Positions 4,216-20,775 of a stretch of DNA of 23,098 bases are shown here, one piece after another. Each line of letters starts with the position of its first letter. Within the stretch, counting starts at the first letter, position 1. Source of the stretch: a virus; the IMG/VR virus record IMGVR_UViG_3300020281_000131, positions 1 to 23,098 of that record; one strand, given 5' to 3'. Position numbers and translations under genes: made by a program. The notes beneath the pieces were generated by a model that searched no databases, had not been told where the DNA came from, and worked only from the letters and a program-made list of their open reading frames with translations.

Positions 4216-4223
4216 GCTAGCAC

Positions 4224-5600
4224 CTATGATATTCTAGTTGGAACCAACTTAAATGTATCATAGCGATCATTACCATCGCCTTGATCTACTCCAAAAGCTC
4301 CAAACATTTGATTTAACCCAGCTCTAGCATCTGATCTTTTCTTAGCCAGATTTGCGTATGATTGTTGTAGTCCTGTTAATGCTTGACTATACCCTGTAGA
4401 TTTAGGGAAAGCAGTGATTGCTTTGTTATACAATCCTGATTGTGTGTTTAGACCTGCTATCATACCCGAATCATATGCAGTAGCTGCATTTGCTGCAGTC
4501 TGTAAATCAAACCTACGTTTTTCTGCTGCTCTTAACCCAGGGTTGTTGTAGTCAATAGAAGCTAGAGCATCCCGTTTAGCAAGCGCACCTTTGTTTTTTG
4601 CTGTTTGATATGCTGTTCTTGCTACTTGATTAGGATCAAAGTTTTCAGCAAGACCTAAATATCTCTTAGCCTGCGCCATAGCAAAATCGTATGCTTCTCT
4701 ATTATTTTTCTTGAGTTCTTCTAGCTGTGCTTTCTGTTCATTTAGCAGTGCTTTTTCTTCGTCAGATGGTTCACCTACACCTAAAAGCTCAGAGCCCAAT
4801 ACATTCACAGCTAACTGAGTGGTTACATCTGCTATAGCCATAGGACTAGTAAACTTACTTTTTAACAGAGCCCCAGTATCCGCAAGCCTGTCACCTGTTA
4901 GCTTAACATCGTATATACCTGCATTTTGAATACCTGTAGTGCTTCCAGTGTTAACACCTGTCTTACCTACAGTGTTCATTACTGATGCATCTGTACCTAA
5001 GTTGGTTTGACTGACTGCACCTGAACCATCAACAACAGTACCTGTACCATCAACTCTAGTATTAGATAGTTTTTCACCAACGGTAGAGCCAGCTCCAGGA
5101 TCATTGAGAGTCTGAACATCCTGAACATCAAAATTTTGACCTTGGGTAACACCTCCATCCATATCTATATTTATGGGAGTATTAGTACCAGGAACTACGC
5201 CTGCTTGAAAATTCTGAGTGTATCCAGCGTCTGGTCTAAATTGAGAACCTGAAAATCTTGCATTATCAAATGTTCTACCTGGTAATTCAGTTTGTCCTGG
5301 CCTAAAGAAACCTGCAAGACCACCTGATATACCACCATATAACGCACCTCTACCTACACCTTGTCCTGTGACTGATCCTGCTACAGCACCTAGTCCAGCA
5401 CCAACCAAGGCACTACCCATAACTGAACCAATGGCTGCAGACAAACCAATACTGCTTGCAATCATAGGAGCAGCTATAGGTATAGCTACTGCTGCAACAA
5501 CAGCTACAACTTTCTTAAATCCGCCACCGCCGTGTTCGGTATATGGTTCTAAGTTTATGGGCGTTAGCCCAGTGTTTGCTACATAATCAATTTGTCTCAT
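4224..5600 (-). CDS. Internal virion protein candidate (glycine/alanine-rich membrane-active, T7 gp14-like position)
   Basis: 458 residues. Residues 28-100 are strongly hydrophobic, with a run of Val/Ala (VVAVVAAVAIPIAAPMIASS) followed by Gly-Ala repeats (GSALVGAGLGAVAGSVTGQG) that resemble membrane-inserting glycine-zipper segments. Residues 101-245 are a polar Thr/Gly/Asn-rich linker containing DMDGGVTQGQ at 146-155. From about 278 to 440 the chain is helical and charged, probably coiled coil. The start at 5600 is supported by GGAGG a few bases upstream, and it overlaps the end of the preceding gene by 14 bases. Position just before the SLT protein and the membrane-active N-terminus fit an ejection protein that forms a pore in the outer membrane, as proposed for T7 gp14. 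I cannot see a sequence match to gp14, so the role is inference. Confidence 0.72.
   Translation of the reverse strand: MRQIDYVANTGLTPINLEPYTEHGGGGFKKVVAVVAAVAIPIAAPMIASSIGLSAAIGSVMGSALVGAGLGAVAGSVTGQGVGRGALYGGISGGLAGFFRPGQTELPGRTFDNARFSGSQFRPDAGYTQNFQAGVVPGTNTPINIDMDGGVTQGQNFDVQDVQTLNDPGAGSTVGEKLSNTRVDGTGTVVDGSGAVSQTNLGTDASVMNTVGKTGVNTGSTTGIQNAGIYDVKLTGDRLADTGALLKSKFTSPMAIADVTTQLAVNVLGSELLGVGEPSDEEKALLNEQKAQLEELKKNNREAYDFAMAQAKRYLGLAENFDPNQVARTAYQTAKNKGALAKRDALASIDYNNPGLRAAEKRRFDLQTAANAATAYDSGMIAGLNTQSGLYNKAITAFPKSTGYSQALTGLQQSYANLAKKRSDARAGLNQMFGAFGVDQGDGNDRYDTFKLVPTRIS
5136..5166 (-). repeat. Copy 2 of 31-base repeat encoding the DMDGG..QGQ motif
   Basis: Matches 3949..3979 at 28 of 31 bases. 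It encodes DMDGGVTQGQ (residues 146-155) of the 458-residue ejection candidate. Of the three differences, the one nearest each middle is silent or conservative, which keeps the peptide nearly unchanged. Confidence 0.75.
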
Positions 5601-7075: not shown

Positions 7076-7435
7076 CTATGCTCTACCTTTTAGTTGCGCT
7101 ATTAAAGAATTAAGCGCATTCCTTGTTTCTGCTAAATCATTAGCTAAAATCTGTACATCGTTTATTAACTTTACAAAATCGTTAAAATCAGCAACCTCTT
7201 GACTACTGATTGTATAACCAACACCTTTGGCAGCTACCTGAGCCATATTTTGTCTGTCTAATACATTCTGCTGTATTTGATCTATAGCTACTGCTTTACT
7301 AGCTAAATCATCTTCACCTCTAGTGCCTGTAAGTAATTCAACATTTTCTTTCAATGCTGTAATAAGCACGACAGTAGCGGCTCCAGAAAGTTGCCCTTGT
7401 GGTACGGCAGGTATTGCAGCGTAGCGTGTTGCCAT
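7076..7435 (-). CDS. Small helical phage structural protein, unknown role
   Basis: 119 residues, mostly helical. It begins ATRYAAIPAVPQGQLSG, then contains ALKENVELLTGTRGEDD (28-44) and a C-terminal helix rich in Leu, Asn and Asp that could form a coiled coil (about 80-116). A small gene with an ENVELLTGTRG-type segment commonly sits between the large tail protein and internal proteins in marine podovirus-like genomes, in my recollection; no function is known to me. The ATG at 7435 shares a base with the TAA of the upstream nozzle candidate (TAATG), indicating coupled translation and probably matched output. Coding status is well supported by this overlap and by composition; function is open. 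Confidence 0.7.
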   Translation of the reverse strand: MATRYAAIPAVPQGQLSGAATVVLITALKENVELLTGTRGEDDLASKAVAIDQIQQNVLDRQNMAQVAAKGVGYTISSQEVADFNDFVKLINDVQILANDLAETRNALNSLIAQLKGRA

Positions 7436-9825
7436 TATGATGCCCTCAATCCGAATGGCGTCTCACCCAAGTGTATACTTCTTATCCTAGCAGATCCCGC
7501 CACTCCTACCTCAAATGTATCACTTCTGTAACCTGTAGGCAATCTAAATATGTTGTCAGATGATATTGTGTTTTCATAAACTAACACTTTGTTTACCCAC
7601 AACCTAAACGTAACAGGCAATGCACCTGGAATATCCAGTAAATATGATGTCAAGTTATCTTCATGAATAGGTGCAGAGTTTAATGTACCAAGCTCTGTTA
7701 TACTGCTATTAGTAGCATTTGCAGTAGGCCCATTAATAGTTCCTATCTCTGCATTGTTTGACCACACGGTAGCGTTAGTTATAGGTACTTGAACGTTTAA
7801 AGCAATAATAGCATTAGTTTCTACATCTGGTGTTGCGTAGTCAGCTATAACTCTAGCTGCTCCCAGATTAAGATAGTCCTTAGTTGTAATTGTTTTTGAC
7901 TTCCATTCTAATGGAGCAAGTGGTTCTGTGCCTTTATCCCACTCAAACAAGTCACCTTGTTGTCCAGCTGCAAAATAAAATTTATTAGTATCTGGGTCTG
8001 TATACGCAGCTGTAAATGTATAATCAATAGATGTAAAGTAACCACCTATACGTTCGTCCTGCTCAAATATAAAAGACCCAGCTGAATGTGATCCAAAATA
8101 TTTACCATTGTAATAAGAGCCAACAATAGTTTTAGGATCAACTGTGGCGTTCCATGTATCCCAGTCGTGAACAAACTTGGTAATGAGTGTTAAACCAGCG
8201 GCTGGACTATATACAGCCATACCAGCGTAGGTAGAATACATTACACCAAATCCCATGTTTACAACTGAGTCTTTAGACAAACATGGATACGGCGTATCAA
8301 TCCTAGCAATGTCCATATTCTCAGGTGTACTACCTGTAATTTGGTACGCATACTCTTCAGTAAATGCTACAATAAAACCAGAAGATACACCTAAGGCTAC
8401 AATATTATATTCAGTAGTAAGTCTGTATTTAGACGGCCATGCATATGGTTTATAAGGTAAAGAAAAACAAATTTGGTTACCAAAAAATCCCACGTATATA
8501 CCATTAGCAGCAAGTGCTAAACCCTGCATATTTTCAGGTGGTGCATCATTATCAGCACTACCTAATATTGTAAGTAGATTACTATACAGAAAATCATCTA
8601 CAAAATGAAACGGGTTGCTAAGCGCAGGATCACCAAAATATCTAGCTGGATCATCAGGAGCCTCAGCTACATCATGGTATTTTTTGCCTGTAGTATCTGC
8701 TGTAGTAGCTTTATCTGAACCAGAACTTGCATATGTAATAGTCTGGTGTCCAGTTACTGACAAAACAATACCATCTGTAACGTTAAATGATGTATCTGTG
8801 CATCCAGATATTTTAAACCTATCACCTTCTGATAAGTTGTGGTAGTCAGCAAACTCAACCGTTGCTACGTTAGTAGTTCGACTAACTGTAGCTATAGAAA
8901 CAGGATACCAAGCATCAGTAAGTTTGTAGTACGCTGTTCCTGATGCTGTAGGTATTGTACGATACAACCTAATCCCACGTATAAAATTATATGTAGGAAC
9001 AGCAGGCGGGGCTGTAGGTAAGTTAGTAAGGGTTACAACTTGACCTTCTTTTAAAAAATCTGTTTCTGAAGGTGCTGAAGGAATTGATTCTTCTTGCCAT
9101 GGAGTAATCCAACTATACACATAATTACGTGCTTGTGTTGTACCAGCAAGCTCTACTTTACCATTAGTATTGTTTGTTACTGCTACATTATTTCCAGTGC
9201 TAAAATACTGAAGACTTGTATCACTAAGCTTTGTGGCTGTTACGTTAGTAGCATTAAATGTTTCTGGGGTAGTGCCTGTAAAATCACGAACAGTTATGAT
9301 ATTTCCTGTTTTAATATTATGGTTACCGTTTGTTACAATAGTAGCTTGGTTAGCTGAATCCCTAGAAAAAGATACAGTATCAAGAGTAGTAAACGCTGTT
9401 ACTGATGTAATAGGTTTAGTATCTGGTAAAGGAAGTCCAAGCTGATAATGCCCACCAGTAGTAGGATAAGGGCCGCTTCCTGAGGTAGCCAAGTCATAAG
9501 TTGAAACTTTGGGTGCGCCATCGCCTGTATAATAAAATCTTTGTTCATCATCATCAAACTCATCTCCTTGTGATGCTTTAACAATATCAACACTTGTATT
9601 CCATGCTAGCCATCTAACAACACCTGTAGGGCTAGTCAAAGGGTATACAGTTTTTATAGTACCTGTACGCCCTAAATTTCGATCAAAGACAGGTTTTCGG
9701 TAAGGTATTAAATCTCCAGAGTATAGCTTAGTATTATATGCAATCTGCGCTGCACCATCAGGTAACAACTCTGAAGTAATACGTGGTGCTTCACCTAAAA
9801 ATTTTAATAACTTAACTGACGCCAT
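7435..9825 (-). CDS. Large tail protein, tail-nozzle (T7 gp12-like) candidate
   Basis: 796 residues, close to the 794 of T7 gp12. It begins KLLKFLGEAPRITSELLPDG, then NTKLYSGDLIPYRKP, an N-terminal pattern I associate with large structural tail proteins of marine short-tailed phages. The body is beta-rich, with repeated strand-turn units (for example LALAANGIYVGFFGNQICFS at about 437-456, followed by IVALGVSSGFIVAFTEEYAY) consistent with a beta-propeller. Two inserted beta domains, about 150-228 and 310-378, share an N..GN/DYHNL..G-type pattern and FN[AV]T. The gene is TAATG-overlapped at both ends, by the endolysin upstream and the 119-residue gene downstream. A nozzle role fits length, fold and the internal-protein genes that follow, but I cannot align it to gp12 by eye. 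Confidence 0.72.
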   Translation of the reverse strand: MASVKLLKFLGEAPRITSELLPDGAAQIAYNTKLYSGDLIPYRKPVFDRNLGRTGTIKTVYPLTSPTGVVRWLAWNTSVDIVKASQGDEFDDDEQRFYYTGDGAPKVSTYDLATSGSGPYPTTGGHYQLGLPLPDTKPITSVTAFTTLDTVSFSRDSANQATIVTNGNHNIKTGNIITVRDFTGTTPETFNATNVTATKLSDTSLQYFSTGNNVAVTNNTNGKVELAGTTQARNYVYSWITPWQEESIPSAPSETDFLKEGQVVTLTNLPTAPPAVPTYNFIRGIRLYRTIPTASGTAYYKLTDAWYPVSIATVSRTTNVATVEFADYHNLSEGDRFKISGCTDTSFNVTDGIVLSVTGHQTITYASSGSDKATTADTTGKKYHDVAEAPDDPARYFGDPALSNPFHFVDDFLYSNLLTILGSADNDAPPENMQGLALAANGIYVGFFGNQICFSLPYKPYAWPSKYRLTTEYNIVALGVSSGFIVAFTEEYAYQITGSTPENMDIARIDTPYPCLSKDSVVNMGFGVMYSTYAGMAVYSPAAGLTLITKFVHDWDTWNATVDPKTIVGSYYNGKYFGSHSAGSFIFEQDERIGGYFTSIDYTFTAAYTDPDTNKFYFAAGQQGDLFEWDKGTEPLAPLEWKSKTITTKDYLNLGAARVIADYATPDVETNAIIALNVQVPITNATVWSNNAEIGTINGPTANATNSSITELGTLNSAPIHEDNLTSYLLDIPGALPVTFRLWVNKVLVYENTISSDNIFRLPTGYRSDTFEVGVAGSARIRSIHLGETPFGLRAS

Positions 9826-10277
9826 TATGTCACCTCAAAATGTGGGGCATCTATAAATGGACGTTTACCTTGTCGCCTACGTAAATCAATATACGCAAGC
9901 ATAAGTTCTTCCATAGTTCCGTGCCATTCTCTTATGTCATCAATATGCCATGCTGCACCCCAACGTATTGACAGATCATGTTCCATAGCTGCTGTTTTCA
10001 TAGCTTCGGCAACATCATCATAAACATTCAACTCCCAACTTATTTTGGGGCCTACGTATGCAACAAGATCAACAGCATTACCATCAAGATGTTTGCTGTT
10101 CATTGTCATTGATGCACCTGACTCTACTAACTCTTTTTGTTCTTCTACAGTTCTGAGTCCACAGGTAACACCAAAGTCAACTTTTGTGTAATCAATGGCT
10201 GATTTTACAACTTTAATTAACTTATCATTTATACCTTCTAGTCTACTAAGACTTCGCTCTGATAATACATAACTCAT
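9825..10277 (-). CDS. M15-family peptidase endolysin (L-alanyl-D-glutamate endopeptidase type)
   Basis: 150 residues with no signal peptide. The zinc site is complete: SKHLDGNAVD gives His63 and Asp70, and DAPHFEV near the end gives His146, with Asp143 in the catalytic acid position. GVTCGLRTVEEQKELV (36-51) is the conserved segment ahead of the first zinc motif in VanY / phage T5 endolysin relatives. It hydrolyses peptide stems of peptidoglycan and, lacking its own export signal, needs a holin to reach the wall. An unusual Trp/His/Asp stretch (WGAAWHIDDIREWHG, 106-120) sits between the zinc motifs. Start ATG 10277 overlaps the TGA of the holin gene by four bases (ATGA). This is the lytic enzyme of the cassette; assignment is strong. 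Confidence 0.92.
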   Translation of the reverse strand: MSYVLSERSLSRLEGINDKLIKVVKSAIDYTKVDFGVTCGLRTVEEQKELVESGASMTMNSKHLDGNAVDLVAYVGPKISWELNVYDDVAEAMKTAAMEHDLSIRWGAAWHIDDIREWHGTMEELMLAYIDLRRRQGKRPFIDAPHFEVT

Positions 10278-10669
10278 TTAGTAAGTCCTTTCTGCTTCTC
10301 ATAGGTTCTGAGTCCTCCGATTCCGAGCATGCCGCCAAGAACCGTGAGAAGTGTACCCATGTCAAATTCAGGTAGCTCTGGTAATTCTGCACCAGCAAAT
10401 GATGCACCAAATATAATTAAGTCTTTTAAGATAAAATGGTATGCAAAAGCAATCGCACAAACCCAACCAACAGCTGGTCTCCAGCCGCCTTTGAACAATG
10501 ACCCAGATGCTGCTTCAGCCTTATTAACTTCAATTTGGGCGAGCGCAAGCTGTTGGGCATGTTTCTCAGACATCGTTGCCAACTCGTGGGCAATTCTTGC
10601 CTTCTCATCTGCGTCAGGTATAAATTTATCTAGTAGCCCTGTAACTGGGCCAATCAATGCTTGTATCAT
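10274..10669 (-). CDS. Holin of the 3TM GTA-release type
   Basis: 131 residues. An amphipathic N-terminal segment (MIQALIGPVTGLLDKFIPD) is followed by a charged helix (DEKARIAHELATMSEKHAQQLALAQIEV, only its character matters) and then GGWRPAVGWVCAIAFAYHF at 61-79, the hallmark of the holin family first described for gene transfer agent release (Pfam GTA_holin_3TM). Hydrophobic segments lie at about 66-90 and 104-120, with RTYEKQKG at the C-terminus. It should oligomerise in the inner membrane and let the M15 endolysin through. Both ends overlap neighbours by four bases (ATGA), between the EF-hand membrane protein and the endolysin, which is the expected order for a lysis cassette. Confidence 0.9.
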   Translation of the reverse strand: MIQALIGPVTGLLDKFIPDADEKARIAHELATMSEKHAQQLALAQIEVNKAEAASGSLFKGGWRPAVGWVCAIAFAYHFILKDLIIFGASFAGAELPELPEFDMGTLLTVLGGMLGIGGLRTYEKQKGLTK

Positions 10670-11690: not shown

Positions 11691-11873
11691 TTAGCCTCCT
11701 AATCTAAAAATTATAGCGGTTAACACTGACCCTGATCCCACAATCAAGATCCCTGCACAAGCGATCAGAAGACGTTCCAATCGGTTGATTCTGAATAAAA
11801 TCATTTCATAACGCTCAGCACATACTGCTTCATGCGTTGCTAAATCTTTTTCCACTTCACTAACCCTAGCCAT
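11691..11873 (-). CDS. Small membrane protein, XhlA-like coiled coil plus TM helix
   Basis: 60 residues: a charged N-terminal helix (ARVSEVEKDLATHEAV), a second amphipathic stretch (ILFRINRLERLL) and one transmembrane helix at about 36-57 (LIACAGILIVGSGSVLTAII). This short coiled coil followed by a C-terminal membrane helix is the layout of hemolysin XhlA-like proteins, which accompany holins in many phages. The ATG at 11873 overlaps the previous TAA (TAATG). Placed at the head of the membrane-protein cassette, it is a plausible holin partner. The family match is by pattern only; it could also be an unrelated single-pass protein. Confidence 0.68.
   Translation of the reverse strand: MARVSEVEKDLATHEAVCAERYEMILFRINRLERLLIACAGILIVGSGSVLTAIIFRLGG
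11695..11700 (-). promoter_or_regulatory. Perfect Shine-Dalgarno for the 53-residue gene
   Basis: AGGAGG on the minus strand, five bases before ATG 11689 and lying within the last codons and stop of the 60-residue gene. It decides the start of a gene short enough to be overlooked and couples it to the gene before. Confidence 0.8.
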
Positions 11874-12256
11874 TAATCACCTACCAATGCATTCTTTTTA
11901 GCTGTATGTGTAGCTACAATATCACCGATAGCAGTAAGCACAGCTGTGTCATTTATCCTGTGTGCTTTCAACTCATCGGTCAAACTATAGCTAGCACGTA
12001 TAGCCTCCTGACAATCTTTATTAATTTGTTTGGCATATGGCGAGTTTTGCTTTACCCATGTCTTTGCTGCTTGAGCTGTTGTTGCTGCAAAGTCATCATT
12101 AGAAGAAGTGCATAGAGCTGCATAGCGTGTATCTAAAGTTCCATAAGAATTGCCAGTAGCATGATCTGTTCCATGCCATATAGGAGCTTCATACTCTGAA
12201 TCCCATTCTACAGGTTCGCCTAATTCACCCGTCCATTTATATAATTTTTGTGCCAT
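11873..12256 (-). CDS. 127-residue protein after the fibre block, unknown role
   Basis: Starts at ATG 12256 with AGGAGG four bases upstream, overlapping the TAG of the RCC1 gene. The protein begins AQKLYKWTGELGEPVEWD, has a Gly/Asn/Thr-rich middle and two helices rich in Ala, Asn and Lys (about 55-120), with no membrane segment or signal peptide. Two Cys occur (49 and 82 by count). Genes of this size directly behind receptor-binding proteins are often fibre chaperones or attachment proteins, so that is the leading guess by position only; no family is recognised. Its stop overlaps the start of the next gene (TAATG), tying it to the lysis cassette as well. Confidence 0.7.
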   Translation of the reverse strand: MAQKLYKWTGELGEPVEWDSEYEAPIWHGTDHATGNSYGTLDTRYAALCTSSNDDFAATTAQAAKTWVKQNSPYAKQINKDCQEAIRASYSLTDELKAHRINDTAVLTAIGDIVATHTAKKNALVGD

Positions 12257-12264
12257 AAAACCTC

Positions 12265-14277
12265 CTAATTAAGCTGTATCCAGCCTTCGACAAAGCCATC
12301 ACCTTCGTCTAACTGGCCGACTCCGTTATATCCGCAACCCATAATTGTTCCATCAGACATCCATGCTAACTGTATTCCTTCACTGTTATAGGAATACCCA
12401 GCGCCAGTCATATGAACAATTTTCTTTTGGGTTTCTCCTGCCCAATGGTAATTAGCAGTAGTAGCACTAGTTTGCGCCCACGGCCCCCAATCTAATCGGA
12501 TATTACTAAGTGTAACGTTACCTGTGCTATTTCTGTAATAATTCATATTGCTGTTATACCCAAACTTCCACAGCCTACCTTCGGTATCTTCGTGGTATGC
12601 TTGAGCTGTGCTTTGTCCGTTTATACCTCTAGTAGTGAAAATCTTTGCAATACTAGTACCTGGGTATGTAAGAGCAGTTTGAGGAGAAGCAGCAGTGGCA
12701 TCTGTAGATGTTGTGGTATTACTATATAGGGTAGTAGTAGATGGATTAGTGGGAGCAAACTGGTTAGTTGTATTACCTAGACCAAGTACCCCTGTACCAT
12801 TGTAGCCCCAAACCCAAGGTGTAGAACCTGGAGAATTTGGAGTTCCATCAAGTGCATGCATAGACATGTCACGACTATTATCACCAACATAATAGAACTG
12901 AGAATAGGTGGTAGCACCACCAATGGCTGTCCATGCGTTTTTCTCAACACTAGTGCCGTCACCCAAGAAACCTATACCTGCGTAACCAGCACCAAATAAA
13001 TTACCAGCTGTAGTTAAATAATGAGCTGTACCAACATAAGTCCATGAAGAAGTAAGATAAACATGAGTAGTACATTGAGCTTGGTATGCATTATTTACGC
13101 CAGTTACTTGTATGGGTGAGGTATGGTTTGTACTAATTGCAGGGCCACCCATCCAACCGTTAGCATTGTACCCCCATACAAACAACTCTCTATTTGTGTT
13201 AATAGCTATTGTGCTTAGGTAACTACTTTGTATAGACATAATGTTACCTACACCAGATATAAGCACAGGGAGTGAGGTGCTAGATGTAGTTCCATGTCCT
13301 AAAACGCCGTTAGCGCCGTAACCCATTGCCCATAGTCTGTACTGTTCATCAATGAAAAACACTCGGTGATAGTTTGGATATCCGTTACCACCAGATGCAA
13401 CATGAATACCTATAACTCGTGTACCTGTACCAGAGTGAGTACGACCTGGCCCAAACTGTGGGATTTTAGTAAGGCCATGCATATTAGTTGTATGACCTAA
13501 TCCGCTTTCTCCGTATCCGTTATAACCAGCAAAAAAGACTGATCCTTTATTTGTAAGACACCAGATACTAGAATATTCTACCCACAATCTTACAAAGTAT
13601 TCGCCTTCTTCAAGCGTACCGTTTTCAGGATTAATTGGTACGCTATAACCACCTTTATGTTTGTTATTACCTGTAAATGAGTTCCACTGGTAAGTATCAG
13701 TACCCCATTTGATAACTTCGTGATTTTCATTTAGATAAACCACAGACCTATAACCACAATAGTTATGGCTAGTAGGATACATAACAGGCCCCATAGCAGG
13801 GTTAGGTATTCCGCTTTCAGGTATCCAGTTATTTGCATAATCAGCTAGCCAAGCTCTTTGTCCTGAAGCTCCATAGGTAGTACCTGAAGTAGCAGTAATC
13901 ACACGATCATAATTAGGCTGTAAGTATTTATTAGCTGATACGTTAACTTGATCTGGGCTACCCCATGCAACATTGTTTCCACTAACTACTAAGGTTTGCC
14001 CAGCAGAACCTCTTGGTAATCGAACAGACTGAGAACCATTATGAGTAACGATGTCACCCTGTGTAGTCATAGGGTTAGCACCATCGGCCATAAGATCCCA
14101 GTGTGCACTATTACTAGAGCTAGGCACTCCAGCGGCTGAGCCTGTTTTATTTGTAGCGTTTACATAAACCCAAGAAGATGGTGGATAAAAGACAACGTCA
14201 TCTTTTTCGTAGGTATCGCTACTGGCAAAAGTACCTCTCCAATTAAATTTGATTTTTCCTAAATCTATCGTTGCCAT
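12265..14277 (-). CDS. Receptor-binding tail protein with RCC1-type beta-propeller
   Basis: 670 residues. The N-terminal domain (about 1-68) begins ATIDLGKIKFNWRGTFA and continues with a TYEKDDVVFYPPSSWVYVN segment, resembling the GxW..T.Y...D.V carbohydrate-binding-like modules at the front of marine phage tail proteins. A linker follows (GDIVTHNGSQSVRLPRGSAG). From about 180 to the end at least six blades of an RCC1/Alpha-tubulin suppressor propeller repeat a GYN/GYGxxGxLGxGT signature: FFAGYNGYGESGLGHTT, LWAMGYGANGVLGHGTT, LFVWGYNANGWMGG, LFGAGYAGIGFLGDGT, VWGYNGTGVLGLGNTT, LWKFGYNSN and IMGCGYNGVGQLDEG. Propellers of this kind bind partners on one face; here probably a host surface molecule. 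It is last in the fibre block; AGAGGAG precedes the start. Confidence 0.85.
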   Translation of the reverse strand: MATIDLGKIKFNWRGTFASSDTYEKDDVVFYPPSSWVYVNATNKTGSAAGVPSSSNSAHWDLMADGANPMTTQGDIVTHNGSQSVRLPRGSAGQTLVVSGNNVAWGSPDQVNVSANKYLQPNYDRVITATSGTTYGASGQRAWLADYANNWIPESGIPNPAMGPVMYPTSHNYCGYRSVVYLNENHEVIKWGTDTYQWNSFTGNNKHKGGYSVPINPENGTLEEGEYFVRLWVEYSSIWCLTNKGSVFFAGYNGYGESGLGHTTNMHGLTKIPQFGPGRTHSGTGTRVIGIHVASGGNGYPNYHRVFFIDEQYRLWAMGYGANGVLGHGTTSSTSLPVLISGVGNIMSIQSSYLSTIAINTNRELFVWGYNANGWMGGPAISTNHTSPIQVTGVNNAYQAQCTTHVYLTSSWTYVGTAHYLTTAGNLFGAGYAGIGFLGDGTSVEKNAWTAIGGATTYSQFYYVGDNSRDMSMHALDGTPNSPGSTPWVWGYNGTGVLGLGNTTNQFAPTNPSTTTLYSNTTTSTDATAASPQTALTYPGTSIAKIFTTRGINGQSTAQAYHEDTEGRLWKFGYNSNMNYYRNSTGNVTLSNIRLDWGPWAQTSATTANYHWAGETQKKIVHMTGAGYSYNSEGIQLAWMSDGTIMGCGYNGVGQLDEGDGFVEGWIQLN

Positions 14278-14289
14278 TTACATCTCCTC

Positions 14290-15684
14290 TTAAACATCTT
14301 CAGTATTCGTGGCAGGGTAAGCTCTATTGGAACCCCATATAATTCTAGCGGCTCCATTTCCACCATCAGCACCACTTTGTCCTGAATCATCTTCAGCTCC
14401 ACCTCCGCCCCCACCAGGGGTTTTACTTTTTAGTGTAAAGGGTGAAGCTAATGACCCTTTATGTCCTTGAGTAGTGGAGTTTCCTGCTGTGTTGTTACTT
14501 GTTGATGCAGCACCGTCAGCGCCTTCGCCAAAAATACTTACGCCTCCGCCACCTGATGTGACTGCTGCTGTATAGCTGTTAATAGCTCCGCCGCCGCCTC
14601 CGCCGCCTCCAGATTGAGCATTTGTAGGATTGACATTATACCTACCACCAGTGCCGCCTCCGCCTGAATATCCAGCAGCACCGCCTCCGCCGCCACCACC
14701 ATTTCCGTTAGCGCCTGGGCCGCCATTTCCGCCGTTACCACCGCCGTCTGCTTCTGTCCCTTGGCTACCTACTCCGCCACCAGCAGCATTAACTCCGCTT
14801 TGATTGTATGAACCTTTAGCACCACCAAAGGCTTGAAGTAATATTGTAGTACCTCTTTTTATCTCTGAAGTGCCTCCTGCTGTAGCGTTATTATTTCCAG
14901 CACCTGTTCCGCCTGTACCCCCAGCACCAACAATTACAGTTAATGTTTCGCCTGCGGTTACAGAAAATGTTCCATATGAAAGGCCACCGCCTCCACCTCC
15001 GCCACCTGAAACACCATTACTAGCTAGTGTTGACGCAGATCCACCTCCGCCCCCACCAACAACTACAGCAGAAACGGTTGTAACTCCAGCTGGTACAGTA
15101 AATGTAGTAGTCCCAGGAGTTGTAAATGCTTGTTGTCCTGATACTACTCCTGTGCCACCAGTAGTAATCATTTCTAAATGGCCATCATCTTCATGGTCAT
15201 CTTCATAACGTATCTGAAGTTGTATATCTCCAGGAAGAAACAACGCTTCATCATAGTCAGATTCTTGAAGTAATTCTGTACTACCAGCTGATGTGTAATC
15301 TGCTTTTAAATTACCTGCAGAACTTTTATAAAAACCATAATACTCTGAACGTTGCCCCCCTCCACCTGACGTTTGCGTAAACAAGTCGTTAACTAATGCA
15401 GCTACAACACGCATCTCAATTCTGCTGCCTGCGCTAAACGTTTTAGCTGTGCTATTATCTTGAGCACGAGTTATAGTAAGAGTATCACCAGCTACGTTTG
15501 TAACTTTTACAATTTCTGTATTCAAAGCTGTGTCAATTAAAGTAGCATAAAAATAATCTGTGCCAGAAGTACTAACCGCAGGAAAAAGTGCGCCATCACC
15601 ACTAGTTACGTCTACTGTAAGAGCAGTGGAGCTTATCCCTCCTGTTATCTGACTTTTGACATTATTTTTAGCTACAGCGACCAT
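14290..15684 (-). CDS. Tail fibre 3: shared N-terminal anchor plus glycine-rich (polyglycine) tip
   Basis: 464 residues. Residues 1-102 are the same anchor domain as in the two genes before it: NNVKSQITGGIS, then GALFPAVST, YFYATLIDT, NTEIVKVTNVAGDTLTITRAQ and SAGSRIEMRV. A linker with DDHEDDGHLEM leads to TFTVPAGVTTVSAVVVGGGG (194-213), the usual opening of glycine-rich tip domains, and then about 240 residues dominated by Gly with Asn, Ala and Ser (GGGGGGGG, GGNGGNGGPGANGNGG). It ends RIIWGSNRAYPATNTEDV. Gly-rich phage adhesins such as S16 gp38 fold as polyglycine-II sandwiches whose loops bind the receptor, so this is probably a receptor-binding fibre. The coding strand has dense GGN tracts (about 14390-15060). 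ATG 15684 overlaps the preceding TAA. Confidence 0.87.
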   Translation of the reverse strand: MVAVAKNNVKSQITGGISSTALTVDVTSGDGALFPAVSTSGTDYFYATLIDTALNTEIVKVTNVAGDTLTITRAQDNSTAKTFSAGSRIEMRVVAALVNDLFTQTSGGGGQRSEYYGFYKSSAGNLKADYTSAGSTELLQESDYDEALFLPGDIQLQIRYEDDHEDDGHLEMITTGGTGVVSGQQAFTTPGTTTFTVPAGVTTVSAVVVGGGGGGSASTLASNGVSGGGGGGGGLSYGTFSVTAGETLTVIVGAGGTGGTGAGNNNATAGGTSEIKRGTTILLQAFGGAKGSYNQSGVNAAGGGVGSQGTEADGGGNGGNGGPGANGNGGGGGGGAAGYSGGGGTGGRYNVNPTNAQSGGGGGGGGAINSYTAAVTSGGGGVSIFGEGADGAASTSNNTAGNSTTQGHKGSLASPFTLKSKTPGGGGGGAEDDSGQSGADGGNGAARIIWGSNRAYPATNTEDV

Positions 15685-16862
15685 TAAGAGTTCACCTCCA
15701 ACGGAGCATCAGTAGATACCTTTGTTGTACCTATGCCATCTAATTCTGTTACAACAAAGGACGCCATGCCTGTGTGAGGGAAGTAGATGTAGTTATTATT
15801 ATCATTACTAAAATGTATACAGTATCTTACAAAATCTGTTGTATTAGGTTCATCATAAGAAGCAAACCCACCCATATGAACATGAGCATTGGCATGCCAT
15901 CCTGCTATACCATCAGCTACGGCTGTACTTGTACCGTCTCCCCCTCGTCTAAGATGACCTACATTTAATGTCGATGATGCAGCTGTAGTACCTGCTGCAG
16001 TAGATGCTATAGACCTTCCAAAAGTTGCGTAAGTATAACTTGAGTTATTATAAAAAGTTCCGCTGACTTCTAATAAGAAAATACTGTCAGTAGACATTGG
16101 TTTTAATATTACAGACAATATGTTGTGCGTTCCGTTATTTACAGGAGTTAACGGAAATTGATTTACAGTAAACCCTGCAGCAGTCCATTTACTGCCATCA
16201 CTAGGAAACCTACCATTATTATCTGTTGAAAATCCTGATGCTGTAGATGTAGCACATATTACATATTTATTTAATATAGGTGAGTTAAGAGGTAGCCACT
16301 CCCCGCTTTGAGCATAATACTCTGGTCTAGCACCACCATAATGATCGGTGTTATACCGCAGATAACCAGCATTACCAGATCCTGGTCGTTGTGCTGTAGT
16401 TCCTTTTGGTAAACTGAAAAATCCTGTAGCTGTATTGTTAGTGCTACTAAAATCAGTAACGTTCAATGCATCAAAAGCTGCATTACTACCATTACTAGTT
16501 ATTACTTTACCACTAGCAGACGATTGATCTGGTAAAATCTCATCTAAATCTGATAATACACCTAGGCCCCCAGCTGTAATACGTAACTCTATTCTATCGT
16601 TAGTAGCAAAAGCCCTAGCAGTAGTAGCTTCTTGTGCCCTTACTATAGTAAGAGTATCGTTAGTACGAGCTGTAACCTTTACTATTTCTTGGTTATTTGA
16701 TGTGTCTAATAACGTAGCAAAAAAATACTGACTACCTGTCAGTGTAGGAAATCTAGCTCCGTGACCCGTTGTTAAAACTATATTTGTGTCAGTTGCAGAA
16801 TAACCCTGAGACAGAGTGCCATAAGCGTTATTTGCAAATTTTATGTCGTGATAATTTGTCAT
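15684..16862 (-). CDS. Tail fibre 2: shared N-terminal anchor plus jelly-roll-like C-terminal domain
   Basis: 392 residues from ATG 16862, which overlaps the TGA of the preceding fibre (ATGA); an ATG eight codons earlier is less likely because it would overlap deeply and dilute the shared N-terminus. The anchor reads FANNAYGTLSQGYSATDT ... GARFPTL ... YFFATLLDT ... QEIVKVTARTNDTLTIVRAQ ... RIELRITAGG (about 8-100). The C-terminal half carries ILSVILKPMSTDSIFLLEV (about 257-275) and ends with MASFVVTELDGIG, the strand pattern of C1q/TNF-like or jelly-roll phage tips, and it matches the corresponding part of the 738-residue fibre. It is a receptor-binding fibre candidate and a paralogue of its neighbours. 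Confidence 0.84.
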   Translation of the reverse strand: MTNYHDIKFANNAYGTLSQGYSATDTNIVLTTGHGARFPTLTGSQYFFATLLDTSNNQEIVKVTARTNDTLTIVRAQEATTARAFATNDRIELRITAGGLGVLSDLDEILPDQSSASGKVITSNGSNAAFDALNVTDFSSTNNTATGFFSLPKGTTAQRPGSGNAGYLRYNTDHYGGARPEYYAQSGEWLPLNSPILNKYVICATSTASGFSTDNNGRFPSDGSKWTAAGFTVNQFPLTPVNNGTHNILSVILKPMSTDSIFLLEVSGTFYNNSSYTYATFGRSIASTAAGTTAASSTLNVGHLRRGGDGTSTAVADGIAGWHANAHVHMGGFASYDEPNTTDFVRYCIHFSNDNNNYIYFPHTGMASFVVTELDGIGTTKVSTDAPLEVNS

Positions 16863-19075
16863 GCGTCTACTATGTTCCCATTCCAATGTGCGGTAGTATC
16901 AAGCCCACCTGGTATATCAAACCCAAATGATCCATAAGGATGTATGTGTTCTTCTACAACCAGACATGCTGAATGCCCGTCAAGATAATTTAAATAAGCT
17001 GTGCCGCTGTTATCTTCCCTATAAAACTGCAACCGAAACCTTACTTTATCAGTAACCCCAGGTCTAAAATATTGAGCTGCAGTCAAAGTACTATAAACAT
17101 GAACTAAGTTATTCCAGTGGCCTGCAAAATACTGATTTTCAGCAATATTACCTACGGCAGTGCCATCAACGTGAGTGACATAATCAACAGAAGCTGTTTG
17201 GGTCATAGTTTGTTGGCTTATTATTGTATTCCCAGGATCGTTAGGCCACGTTCCAGGGGTAACTTGTCCAGTAGAAAAAGAATAATAATACCCTTCGTTA
17301 CTTGCGTTATTTTTTCTTGTAAAATTACCATTAAACTCAGGCTGTAAAAACCTGTCAATATGCATATGCCGACCTATTAAAACTACTGCTTTAGCAGTAT
17401 CAAGATCGCCAGTGTTTTTAAAATTCCTTGTGCTGAGGGGCTGCGGATCATTTTCAATATAATCACAATAAAACGCTATAGCTCCGTATGCACTTCCAGT
17501 ATCTTTATAACACCCAGTGTAAAGTTTAATAGTAAATACAGAATTTGTACTTACAGGCTTAACAGTTATGCCAAAATCACCACCCGCTTGTGTTGGAAAG
17601 TCACCGTTTGATTGGTTTGTTTCATATTGAAAATAATACTGGGTAGAGCTAATTCTTCCTGAAGCACTAGCTCCACCATTAGAGTGTGGGCTGTTAGCCG
17701 TACAAATATATACGTTACCTATATTACCTGACACAGGCAGATAAGAACCTTGGTTCACATTTGTTATGTTTGTGTCGCTGTTTACTGTTTGAGGAGAAGG
17801 GGCTAAATCGTCACGCTTGTAATAGACAGTGCTTTTTGTAGAAGCACTGTAGTGTTTGCCCAACTGAAGAAATCTATTTTTATAAAACTGTACTCTGTAA
17901 GTAGCAGGAAGGATTACATTATTATTTAGTGTAGCACTAACTGAGTAGGTATTACCAGAACCTGACACAGTGCATTCTGTTATGTATGTCCCAGTAGGTA
18001 TGTTTATGTAACCAGCAGGTACTGCAGGTGGAAACAGATAAGCACCTACATATACAAATGCATTCCAATCTTGATCTGGGCTAGCCCCTAATGGATACGG
18101 ACTATGAGGAGGGAAATAACGTCCGCCTGTAGTGTCATAATGGATTTTTATATCGTTAAAAGTTATAATGTTTGCACCAACAGTGTTAGATGTAGTGTAC
18201 GCTATAAAATTCTCACCATAGGAAGTTGTTTGGTAACTAGAGGTAGAAGGCTGAGGGCCACTAGCTGTGCTAGCATCAACTACATCAGCTACATTATCAA
18301 GATATACTAACGAGCCTGCCTGTATAGGCATATCATGGCCTTCACCCATTAAGTATAAATTACCATTAGTGCTTTGGTTTTGTTCAACCCAGCTCCCCAC
18401 ATAAGGGCCACTTGGAAAGTTAATAGTAGTGAACTCTCTTTCATACATCTCATTGCCACGTACATGAGCCATATAAGGATGCGCCCTTACAGGAAGAGAG
18501 ATAAAACTAGTATTAGTATTATTATCGTCAGATATATCGCTAGGGTTAAGAGGCTGGTAGGTGGTGTTTGTTCCATCGGACTTTAAAGCAAACGATCTAT
18601 GTTTTTCATTTTCACTGTGTGTACCATCAAGCTGACCATACCGTCCAAGATACCTAATTAAGGTATGTCCAACAGGAGGTCTGTAAAAAGAAAACCTCTG
18701 TCTAGAGGGGTCAGTATCTGGTGGTATGCTAGGTAGTAAGATGTCTAAGTCAAATAAATCAGTAAGAGCATTTTCAGTAATTCGCAACTCTACAGAATCA
18801 CCTGCGGAAAACGTATTGTTAAAATTTCTAGCAGTTCCATCAGGGCGAGTAATTGTAAGGGTATCGGCAGATCTACTAGTGACACGCATAATCTCCGTAT
18901 TAGTAGCAAGCGCTGAGGAGGTAACAGTTATATAAAAATACTCACCTGTATTTAGAGTAGGAAATTTTGCACCCTCTCCACCTATTAGAGATAAAGAACC
19001 TTGATTAGCAGAAATACCTCCTGCTAAAGAAGCTCTAGCGTTATTAGCTACCTTTACCTCTGAATAGCTTGTCAT
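16859..19075 (-). CDS. Tail fibre 1: long fibre with shared N-terminal anchor and jelly-roll-like tip
   Basis: 738 residues. The N-terminal 105 residues (VANNARASLAGGISANQG ... GAKFPTLNTGEYFYITV ... NTEIMRVTSRSADTLTITRP ... SVELRITENALTDLFD) are the same domain as in the next two genes. The middle is beta-rich with many Tyr, Thr, Asn and Pro, including a His-rich segment (IGRHMHIDRF). Near 510-530 FGITVKPVSTNSVFTIKL matches ILKPMSTDSIFLLEV of fibre 2, and the protein ends with a CLVVEEH strand near GHSACLVVEEHIHPYGSFGF, comparable to MASFVVTELDG of fibre 2. So both ends are paralogous and the middle is longer. The ATG directly follows the TAA of the 146-residue gene. A role in host recognition is inferred from these features. 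Confidence 0.84.
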   Translation of the reverse strand: MTSYSEVKVANNARASLAGGISANQGSLSLIGGEGAKFPTLNTGEYFYITVTSSALATNTEIMRVTSRSADTLTITRPDGTARNFNNTFSAGDSVELRITENALTDLFDLDILLPSIPPDTDPSRQRFSFYRPPVGHTLIRYLGRYGQLDGTHSENEKHRSFALKSDGTNTTYQPLNPSDISDDNNTNTSFISLPVRAHPYMAHVRGNEMYEREFTTINFPSGPYVGSWVEQNQSTNGNLYLMGEGHDMPIQAGSLVYLDNVADVVDASTASGPQPSTSSYQTTSYGENFIAYTTSNTVGANIITFNDIKIHYDTTGGRYFPPHSPYPLGASPDQDWNAFVYVGAYLFPPAVPAGYINIPTGTYITECTVSGSGNTYSVSATLNNNVILPATYRVQFYKNRFLQLGKHYSASTKSTVYYKRDDLAPSPQTVNSDTNITNVNQGSYLPVSGNIGNVYICTANSPHSNGGASASGRISSTQYYFQYETNQSNGDFPTQAGGDFGITVKPVSTNSVFTIKLYTGCYKDTGSAYGAIAFYCDYIENDPQPLSTRNFKNTGDLDTAKAVVLIGRHMHIDRFLQPEFNGNFTRKNNASNEGYYYSFSTGQVTPGTWPNDPGNTIISQQTMTQTASVDYVTHVDGTAVGNIAENQYFAGHWNNLVHVYSTLTAAQYFRPGVTDKVRFRLQFYREDNSGTAYLNYLDGHSACLVVEEHIHPYGSFGFDIPGGLDTTAHWNGNIVDA

Positions 19076-19516
19076 TTACGACACCGTTACTGTCCATGAT
19101 ACCGTTAGCGTATCTGCTGCACCTTTGTTAATTACACTAAACACTGTACGACAGAGCATAGTGCCACCAGAGCTAGCATTAAATAAGCCAGCTTCTGTAA
19201 TAGCTCCTGTTCCATTACCTGCTCCAAATGTAGCTGAATAAGTTACAGCGGCTGCGTTTACATTAGTACTAGTGAGCGTTTGCCTGTTTGCTTCTGTTAC
19301 CAGAGTAGTCTGACCTGCAGCAGCTGCTGTAGTTCCTGTACCAATAGCCATATGACTCATGGCTGTTGCTGTAGCATCTTTCATACGTGACGCTATGTAA
19401 CCTTTTCCTGCGGTTACTACTAGGTTATCAAAGTCGTGTTCTTCTTTGACAATACCCATTTGGTCAACAAGTATAACATTTAGCTTACCTGTTACCGTAA
19501 TTTCATCTTTAAACAT
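19076..19516 (-). CDS. Conserved small phage tail structural protein
   Basis: 146 residues, beta-rich, no Trp except near the end (VSWTVTVS). The run MSHMAIGTGTTAAAAGQTTL (54-73) and the AVTYSATFGAGNGTGAITEAG ... GGTMLCRTVFSV segment are typical of a small virion protein widespread in tailed phages, usually found among fibre and tail genes; I know no precise function. The start at 19516 has AGGAGG four bases upstream and follows closely on the repeat protein. Its neighbour order, between a repeat fibre-like protein and three fibres, fits a tail-fibre-associated or baseplate-type protein. Coding status is secure, role is only broadly known. Confidence 0.78.
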   Translation of the reverse strand: MFKDEITVTGKLNVILVDQMGIVKEEHDFDNLVVTAGKGYIASRMKDATATAMSHMAIGTGTTAAAAGQTTLVTEANRQTLTSTNVNAAAVTYSATFGAGNGTGAITEAGLFNASSGGTMLCRTVFSVINKGAADTLTVSWTVTVS

Positions 19517-19524
19517 AATACCTC

Positions 19525-20775
19525 CTAGTTACTAAAAGCTTGCAATGCAAACTCCTCATTAAAAGGTGGAGAAGAGCCTATAAGCGTGGCGCTATTGAAT
19601 AAACCCCCGTCACCCTCAAAAGCTGCACCTATCTCATACGTGTTGTCAGATGCACTAATTGAATCTAACACGCTTTTGTTAGGCTGTAAAACTATATTTT
19701 GAGAAACTGACACACTGTCCGACAGCCCGTTTAACCCTATGTTAAGTACTGGTGCGTCTGTAGCTTGTGGAAAGTCTGAAAAACCTTTGGTGGCAGCAAA
19801 TGTAGGTACATCTGTTACTGTAAAGTTATCAGCTAAACTATTTAATCCTACGTTAAATACTTGTGTATCTGTAGCATGTGGAAAATCTGTAAAACCTTTA
19901 GTTACAGCAAACGCTGGTGAATCTGTAGCGCCAGCTGAATCTGATAAACTGTTAAGCCCAAACGTCATAGCAGGAATGTCAGACATTGTTACTGGATCTG
20001 GATCTACTGCAGCTGTAGATAAATCAGTATCAATAGGTTTTGTAACAGTGGGCGCAAACTGATCAAACATAGACACACTGTCAGTAAATTGTCTGCTGAA
20101 TAACATGGTCGGACTGAACACATCCGACATACCAAAAGAATCACTAAGATTAGTATCTACATTAAATATTGGTACATCTGTAAGGTTAATTGAATCACTA
20201 GGATTAAACCCTACACTAAATACTGGTGCGTCTGTAAGACTAAACAAATCACTAAAATTAACACCTACATTAAAGACTGGTGTGTCTATAAGACTAAATG
20301 AATCAGTAAGTACAGACTCTATAGTGAACGGCCCAATAGAATCAGACACAGAAAAACTATCATCTAGGGGACGCCCTAATTCAAACGCTGGTAAGTCTGC
20401 AAGAGAAAATGTGTCGTCTGGTATAGAGTTAAATGTAAAATCAAACGCAGGGGCATCCACGATTATAGGTGTATCTGTAGGGTTAAACCCTATAATAAAT
20501 GGGCCTATAGAATCTGAAGTAAGTACAGTTTCTGCTGGTAGGTTAACAACTGGTATAGCTTCATAAGTCATGTAAATCTCATGACTCAAAGCATTTGCAG
20601 AAACTCTGAATATGTTCTGCGTTATAATAGGATCGGCAGCTAAAGCTATTTCGCTATCTTGAGGTTCAGCATTAAGAGCTATGCCAATTACTGGATGAGT
20701 GCTAGAAGCAGTTCTGGCTAGTACATCTAAAGCCAGCCCACCATTAGTAGCGGCTTTTAGACGTATATTAGGCAT
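19525..20775 (-). CDS. Repeat-rich fibre-like protein (DSFSLTDxPVFNVG repeats)
   Basis: 416 residues. The N-terminal part (1-80) is unique (NIRLKAATNGGLALDVLART). Residues 85-378 are built of 18- to 20-residue units with consensus [LS]-S-D-S-x-S-[LVM]-[ST]-D-x-P-x-F-x-V-G-x-N. Three run at exactly 18 residues (157-210: DSFSLIDTPVFNVGVNFS and two more), and a later pair has a 37-residue compound period with the insert TKGF[ST]DFP[HQ]ATD (275-348). The unique C-terminal tail starts near 380 (EIGAAFEGDGG). No Cys, almost no Lys in the repeat part. The alternation of small polar and hydrophobic residues suggests an extended beta structure, such as a shaft or fibre. TAATG overlap with the gene before. 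Role as tail fibre shaft is inferred from context. Confidence 0.76.
   Translation of the reverse strand: MPNIRLKAATNGGLALDVLARTASSTHPVIGIALNAEPQDSEIALAADPIITQNIFRVSANALSHEIYMTYEAIPVVNLPAETVLTSDSIGPFIIGFNPTDTPIIVDAPAFDFTFNSIPDDTFSLADLPAFELGRPLDDSFSVSDSIGPFTIESVLTDSFSLIDTPVFNVGVNFSDLFSLTDAPVFSVGFNPSDSINLTDVPIFNVDTNLSDSFGMSDVFSPTMLFSRQFTDSVSMFDQFAPTVTKPIDTDLSTAAVDPDPVTMSDIPAMTFGLNSLSDSAGATDSPAFAVTKGFTDFPHATDTQVFNVGLNSLADNFTVTDVPTFAATKGFSDFPQATDAPVLNIGLNGLSDSVSVSQNIVLQPNKSVLDSISASDNTYEIGAAFEGDGGLFNSATLIGSSPPFNEEFALQAFSN
19642..20523 (-). repeat. Coding tandem repeats, 18-20 residue units
   Basis: This stretch encodes residues 85-378 of the 416-residue protein, with a repeating D-S-x-S-x-[ST]-D-x-P-x-F pattern. 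Three consecutive copies have an exact 54-base period at residues 157-210 (about 20146-20307). Other copies vary by one or two codons and are interrupted near residues 211-262. Confidence 0.8.
19732..19953 (-). repeat. Two 111-base compound repeat units
   Basis: Residues 275-311 and 312-348 are direct repeats of 37 residues (111 bases each) that share NSL[SA]D, the TKGF[ST]DFP[HQ]ATD block and F/LN[VI]GL. The DNA is visibly more alike than in the 18-residue units, suggesting a more recent duplication. Confidence 0.8.

What the first reader, a model, noticed from the sequence alone, without database searches (positions are those of the whole stretch)
14290..19075. Three tandem fibres sharing one anchor domain but with different tips
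The 738-, 392- and 464-residue proteins share a roughly 100-residue N-terminal domain (patterns A.FPxL, YF[YF][AI]T, EI[VM][KR]VT.....DTLTI.R and [RS][IV]E[LM]R). The first two also share a jelly-roll-like C-terminal piece with [IV]xxKPxST[ND]S[IV]F; the third carries a polyglycine tip. This is what duplication plus domain swapping at one anchor point would produce, giving a virion with several receptor specificities or a phase- or strain-variable fibre set.
Basis: seen in the sequence. Interest (0 to 1): 0.7.

Follow-up and report, generated by a model that had tools for sequence, protein, structure and literature searches.

The report
Phage fibre array with hidden adaptor
A virus of bacteria known only from sequence data carries three neighbouring tail-fibre genes that plug into the tail with the same anchor; two are true fibres with sugar-binding-type heads, and the third is mainly a socket that appears to hold a separately made fourth fibre, an arrangement this virus shares with unrelated marine phages.

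Summary
A (738 aa), B (392 aa) and C (464 aa) share a ~100-residue N-terminal anchor (25-31 s.d. above shuffles). It is a known module: PHROG tail-fibre families, and the fibre base in the cryo-EM tail of podophage GP4 (8JOV chain 1, Z 14.2). The A/B jelly-roll tip is also real (TNF/C1q-like, Z about 10-11). Tandem fibres with one anchor are published for Bcep22-like (Lessievirus) phages, with the same host-range idea, so that core is not new.

The interpretation needs correcting. A and B are paralogues along their length, not an anchor with swapped tips. Each slot is its own clade across relatives, so no recent duplication is visible. There is no sign of phase variation. C is chiefly an adaptor: after the anchor it has a ~65-residue domain ("dock") without a Pfam or PHROG match. 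The same domain ends T7-type fibres and small stand-alone proteins of marine phages, directly upstream of a gene with D's N-terminus (73 of 78 loci; 9 of 730 other ORFs). D, an RCC1-propeller fibre, probably plugs into C. The polyglycine tip is peculiar to this window: eleven relatives' C genes stop at the dock. Virion presence and receptors are untested.

The parts
16859..19075 (-). Fibre A, 738 aa: anchor (res 1-108, 18752-19075), variable middle with ~300 extra residues, C-terminal tip (res 428-738) related to B's tip
   Evidence: 8 of 8 complete arrays of close relatives have it in first position
15684..16862 (-). Fibre B, 392 aa: anchor (res 1-98, 16569-16862), linker, TNF/C1q-like jelly-roll tip (res 195-378, 15729-16280)
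   Evidence: 64-78% identical over full length in close relatives
14290..15684 (-). Adaptor C, 464 aa: anchor (15370-15684), dock domain (res 106-175, 15160-15369), Gly-rich extension (res 176-464, 14293-15159)
   Evidence: relatives' C ends at the dock (168 aa)
15160..15369 (-). Dock domain inside C; no Pfam or PHROG family for the relatives' dock
   Evidence: C168-only profile hits it at E 8.6e-18; 0 families for the isolated 69-aa dock of L005
14293..15159 (-). Gly-rich extension of C (PF21722), 33% Gly, ending RIIWGSNRAYPATNTEDV; elsewhere a stand-alone 260-300 aa protein
12265..14277 (-). D, 670 aa: conserved N-terminal domain DN (res 1-108, 13954-14277) and RCC1-type beta-propeller; predicted to be carried by C's dock
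11873..12256 (-). g127, 127 aa, unknown; travels with one subtype of D, candidate fibre chaperone
   Evidence: no family match
19076..19516 (-). g146, 146 aa, collar-fibre-like protein always directly upstream of A
   Evidence: PF12571 E 7.5e-6, PF23140 (GP4 fibre I gp80) E 2.7e-4; 65-97% identity in relatives
7435..9825 (-). g796, hub protein; homologue of GP4 8JOV chain A (6 copies), predicted docking ring for the anchors
   Evidence: E 1.4e-56 to 8jov_A; phrog_511

Best explanation
The locus is the host-recognition cassette of a Bcep22-like podovirus. Shown by sequence and fold: A, B and C carry the anchor domain that attaches fibre trimers in the GP4 tail; A and B are full-length paralogues ending in a TNF/C1q-like jelly roll; C is anchor plus a dock domain, here with a Gly-rich extension; D starts with the domain that follows a dock in many marine phages. 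Inferred: A and B are homotrimeric fibres whose jelly-roll heads bind surface glycans. C is a trimeric adaptor whose dock holds the N-terminus of D, so that D's RCC1 propeller is a separately encoded receptor-binding head, swappable without touching the anchor. In this phage C has also gained a Gly-rich head, so it may present two binding elements. Whether A, B and C sit on one virion (mixed trimers at six sites, or separate rings) is open.
For: Anchor: PHROG tail-fibre families; 8jov_1, Portal-tail complex of phage GP4, sequence E 2.4e-24, fold E 1.6e-9, TM 0.81, Z 14.2, present as 18 chains beside 6 chains of the g796 homologue. Jelly roll: Z 10-11 to trimeric TNF-like lectins PLTL and BC2L-C. 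Array conserved: 3 anchors in 8/8 complete arrays of close relatives, 2 in 26/26 of the wider group, and nowhere else in the long contigs searched with a B profile. Dock: a profile made only from relatives' C proteins finds T7-type adaptor L090 at E 4e-11. At scale, dock in 73/78 genes directly upstream of DN, 9/730 other ORFs; seed-only model 45/78 against 1/730; 20 of 23 clusters at 70% identity; the dock ends 0-3 residues before the C-terminus in all 73. In L014, whose C has no dock (S74 tip instead), no DN gene follows.
Against: No binding, virion or receptor data. The A model failed (mean pLDDT 34), so its tip fold rests on homology to B. Gene adjacency plus a shared terminal domain does not prove contact. 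Loci were collected by DN, so docks without DN are under-sampled, and some small dock ORFs lie near but not directly before DN. JC1 mass spectrometry lists only one of its three fibres. The window is a 23-kb fragment with no host known.
Confidence: 0.68

Rival explanations
1. One reading: three interchangeable fibres made by duplication and tip swapping at one anchor, giving mixed virions with several receptor specificities.
For: Shared anchor; wider-group tips dissimilar while anchors stay similar; the same proposal is published for Lessievirus, including different fibres on different virions (PMC10269572).
Against: Slots are separate old clades; B is full-length conserved; A and B are homologous over their length; C's conserved form has no tip.
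Confidence: 0.2
2. C's Gly-rich tip is the real receptor binder of this phage and D is a leftover or independent fibre; the dock is just a linker.
For: The window's dock has an insertion (about res 159-167) and is more diverged than the anchor (51-60% against 71-75% identity); Gly-rich tips act as adhesins in T4-like phages (general knowledge).
Against: D is intact, closely follows C with its own ribosome site, and the dock is still recognised at E 9e-18; the dock-DN linkage holds across phage groups.
Confidence: 0.12
3. A phase-variable or diversity-generating fibre set.
For: Multiple related fibre genes in tandem.
Against: No suitable inverted repeats, no reverse transcriptase or serine recombinase in six related contigs, invariant order and orientation in relatives.
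Confidence: 0.03

Closest known systems
Lessievirus (Bcep22-like) multiple tail-fibre genes: BcepIL02 gp58/59/61/62, DC1, JC1 gp56/57/59, BcepMigl, CSP3
   Same: Same anchor domain in 3-4 tandem genes, same place just before the hub/internal virion protein
   Different: Tips unrelated to A, B or C at tblastn level where tested (B tip, Gly tip); no dock or DN match reported in these phages by tblastn; ~300-aa fibres against 392-738 aa here
Ralstonia podophage GP4 tail (8JOV)
   Same: Anchor sequence and fold, hub protein homologue
   Different: Among the chains of the solved tail one protein matched the anchor, in 18 copies; here three genes share the anchor
T7-type marine phages (Pelagibacter phages HTVC024P, HTVC025P, HTVC031P, Gjalp, Eistla)
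   Same: Dock at the C-terminus of the fibre or adaptor, followed directly by a DN gene
   Different: Their anchor is the T7 tail-fibre N-terminal domain or none; their DN proteins are 240-305 aa, too short to hold D's RCC1 head
Branched receptor-binding systems of Klebsiella podophages and Ackermannviridae
   Same: Works alike: one anchored protein carries a second, separately encoded binder
   Different: No sequence match of the dock to any family, including branching domains, in Pfam or PHROGs

Membership tests
Bcep22-like (Lessievirus-type) multi-fibre array | 3-4 tandem fibre genes sharing the N-terminal anchor | tested here: met
Bcep22-like (Lessievirus-type) multi-fibre array | Array precedes the internal virion/head-closure protein; acetyltransferase-type gene follows | tested here: inconclusive
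   g796 matches phrog_511 and Lessievirus gp63-type proteins at ~30% identity; lysis genes (holin, M15 peptidase) lie between, unlike BcepIL02; the 166-aa candidate acetyltransferase gave no Pfam or NCBIfam match
Bcep22-like (Lessievirus-type) multi-fibre array | Giant DarB-like protein downstream | not tested
   A >1400-aa ORF lies downstream in relatives but was not identified
GP4-type fibre anchor | Sequence and fold match to 8JOV chain 1 | tested here: met
GP4-type fibre anchor | 18 copies (six trimers) on the tail hub | not testable with these tools
   needs virion structure
TNF/C1q-like jelly-roll tip | Jelly-roll fold in C-terminal part | tested here: met
   B: Z 10-11, local pLDDT about 65-75 in strands; A only by homology
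Klebsiella/T7-like branched receptor-binding system | T4 gp10-like branching domain in the anchored protein | tested here: inconclusive
   dock matches no Pfam or PHROG family; no structure comparison made
Phase-variable or DGR fibre system | Inverted repeats with recombinase, or template/variable repeats with reverse transcriptase | tested here: not met
   (related contigs; the window's own genome is incomplete)

The most novel reading that the evidence does not exclude
The dock/DN pair is a general, so far unnamed plug-and-socket joint of marine podoviruses that lets phages with unrelated tail anchors (GP4/Bcep22-type, T7-type, or a stand-alone socket protein) exchange whole receptor-binding fibres; in this window the socket protein has also acquired a second, Gly-rich head, making a two-headed adaptor.
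Probability: 0.45. Interest if true: 0.62.

Novelty: new variant of a known kind. Interest (0 to 1): 0.45.

Why it matters
Multi-fibre arrays with one anchor are already known. The new part is that one 'fibre' looks like a socket for a separately encoded fibre, and that the same socket-plug pair occurs in marine phages with a different anchor. If true, host-recognition modules can move between unrelated phages without re-fitting to the tail. It gives a sequence signature for finding cognate receptor-binding proteins in uncultured marine phages, including those of SAR11 bacteria, and a joint that can be tested with two small purified proteins.

Tried and rejected
Structure of A from 8 orthologues: mean pLDDT 34, not used. 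Isolates related to B's tip or C's Gly tip by tblastn: none. Host through genome contigs with the hub protein: no relative. AU tests on anchor phylogeny do not decide whether A, B and C arose by duplication within this lineage: A+B+C p 0.28, A+B 0.74, B+C 0.37, A+C 0.42, 106 columns only; so origin by in-lineage duplication is neither shown nor excluded. Phase variation/DGR: no support. Separate translation of the Gly-rich part from an internal ATG at codon 172: the upstream sequence has no clear ribosome site, so one fused protein is preferred. Assembly chimera at the C extension: not excluded by reads, but its GC3 (0.23) matches the rest of C and D follows in the usual place. GP4 genome record and the GP4 structure paper were not held.

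Full report
What was checked. Their first ~100 residues are homologous far beyond chance (profile comparison, reversed controls) and match known tail-fibre families phrog_8469, phrog_6427 and phrog_30299. No Pfam or NCBIfam family covers this domain.

What the anchor is. A profile of B and its orthologues finds one solved structure in the whole PDB by sequence, 8JOV chain 1, a 439-aa putative tail fibre present as 18 chains; a profile of A finds the same one. The model of B, built on 51 sequences, has a confident anchor (pLDDT 84-93) that matches the same chain, from the GP4 portal-tail complex, by fold (Foldseek E 1.6e-9, TM 0.81, 47% identity; Z 14.2). The 796-aa protein downstream matches 8JOV chain A, six chains, at E 1.4e-56. 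So the anchor is very probably the part that attaches fibre trimers to the six-fold tail hub. This is known structure applied by homology; copy number here is not known.

Relatives. Forty-eight IMG/VR loci share the hub protein. Close relatives (72-88% identity in the hub) keep the order g146-A-B-C; all complete arrays have three anchor genes (8 of 8), while the wider group (~55%) has two (26 of 26). In six long contigs a B-profile search finds anchors only in the array. Lessievirus isolates have three or four: BcepIL02 and DC1 four, JC1 and BcepMigl three. The CSP3 paper describes multiple fibre genes with a core homology in this genus and argues that not all are on each virion (PMC10269572). 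JC1 virion proteomics lists gp56 but neither gp57 nor gp59 (PMC9144972). The core of the finding is therefore already known in kind.

History of the slots. On a tree of 92 anchors, the A, B and C anchors of close relatives are separate groups (support 100, 100, 99); L014's C falls outside the C group. In the window the anchors are 55-60% identical as DNA and share exact matches of at most 15 nt. So the three slots predate the clade, with no sign of recent duplication or of gene conversion. Whether they arose by duplication within this lineage cannot be settled with ~100 columns.

A and B. Beyond the anchor, A and B share a middle segment (E 1.6e-7) and their C-terminal parts (57 columns, E 9e-13; 186 columns globally, E 2e-14; controls). 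They are diverged full-length paralogues, A carrying some 300 extra residues. Among close relatives A's anchor is 75-84% identical and its middle (res 200-350) 27-44%, while B is 65-87% throughout (L014 lower). B's tip model (strand pLDDT about 65-75) matches trimeric TNF/C1q-like proteins, including the lectins PLTL and BC2L-C and the Chlamydia Pgp3 C-terminal domain, at Z 10-11. A's own model failed.

C is different. In eleven relatives found with the C anchor, C is 168 aa and stops right after a ~63-residue domain; in L014 C instead has an S74 chaperone tip. Only the window adds 289 residues of Gly-rich sequence after that domain. The addition is a complete known module (PF21722), found elsewhere as stand-alone 260-300 aa proteins with the same beginning (GQQAFTTPGT) and ending (RIIWG..RAFPSTNTG).

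The dock. D homologues turned up in two contigs, L089 and L090, where the gene before D is a different, T7-type adaptor (PF03906 weak match in L089; T7-type tail PHROGs in L090). The last ~65 residues of those adaptors resemble the terminal domain of C (18 s.d. for L090, 9-10 for L089, against shuffles). A profile from the relatives' C proteins alone finds the window's C at E 9e-18 and L090 at E 4e-11. An isolated dock matches no PHROG family, and the 168-aa C protein matches no Pfam family. Pelagibacter phage isolates show the same arrangement: a fibre gene ending in a dock, then a DN gene.

Test at scale. Eighty loci were collected by D's N-terminal domain (DN) alone. In 73 of 78 with a readable upstream gene, that gene carries a dock; among 730 other ORFs nine do, and these are themselves 97-106-aa ORFs ending in a dock. 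With the stricter model from C proteins only, the counts are 45 of 78 and 1 of 730. Upstream C-termini fall into 23 clusters at 70% identity, 20 with a dock, and in all 73 genes the dock ends 0-3 residues from the C-terminus. The upstream proteins have two unrelated anchors (Bcep22-type 11, T7-type 41) or were classed otherwise or cut by the contig end. D's N-terminal 108 residues are 64-72% identical between phages whose propellers are 29-54% identical. Caveat: many loci are related, the second-round model was trained partly on such genes, and collection by DN under-samples docks without DN.

Interpretation. The simplest reading is a plug and socket: the dock on an anchored protein holds the N-terminus of the next gene's product. 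The Bcep22-like clade carries the pair at its third anchor slot. In the window the socket protein has gained a Gly-rich head as well, the only case among those examined where the dock is not terminal. That resembles in function the branched receptor-binding systems of Klebsiella and Ackermannviridae phages, but no sequence relation to their branching domains was found. Physical docking, the role of each head, and presence in virions are inferences.

Phase variation. No suitable inverted repeats were found in the array and no reverse transcriptase or serine recombinase in six long related contigs; gene order and orientation are constant. A ribosome site is clear for C and D, while A and B start at or next to the preceding stop codon, which suggests coupled expression rather than alternatives.

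Verdict. Observation confirmed; interpretation partly supported. The multi-fibre array is a known kind; the adaptor role of C and the dock-DN joint shared with unrelated marine phages is a new variant worth a test.

Noticed in passing
window 19525-20775: 416-aa protein made of repeats (54-nt and 111-nt tandem units, DSFSLTDxPxFxVG-like); homologues in relatives range from 258 to 621 aa, so repeat number varies.
   Followed up: partly
window 11873-14277; L005, L006, L008, L009 against L010-L013: D comes in two subtypes (RCC1 part ~29% or ~54% identical to the window) and the gene after it changes with it (127-aa type or an unrelated 139-159-aa protein), as expected of a fibre and its own chaperone.
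   Followed up: partly
window 9825-10669: A lysis pair (GTA_holin_3TM holin, M15-type peptidase) sits between the fibre genes and the tail-hub gene, unlike in BcepIL02 where fibres directly precede the hub gene.
   Followed up: no
L020, L029, L043 (positions ~2988-4470): Slot-1 anchor protein is a 167-aa stub followed by ~200-aa proteins starting MSTLxVENxxGPxSGSNANKVxIPSG; the stub's end resembles that start, possibly another socket-plug pair.
   Followed up: no
L191 3-7871: A 2623-aa open frame of collagen-like QGIQGVQG repeats interspersed with many copies of a segment matching the DN profile.
   Followed up: no
L014 4663-6039: The third anchor gene ends in a Peptidase_S74 endosialidase-type chaperone domain instead of a dock, and the next gene is a Gly-rich protein without DN.
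   Followed up: partly
L162, L164, L169-L171, L173, L175, L179: Stand-alone 103-106-aa ORFs ending in a dock occur near, but not directly upstream of, DN genes; they may serve other fibre genes.
   Followed up: no
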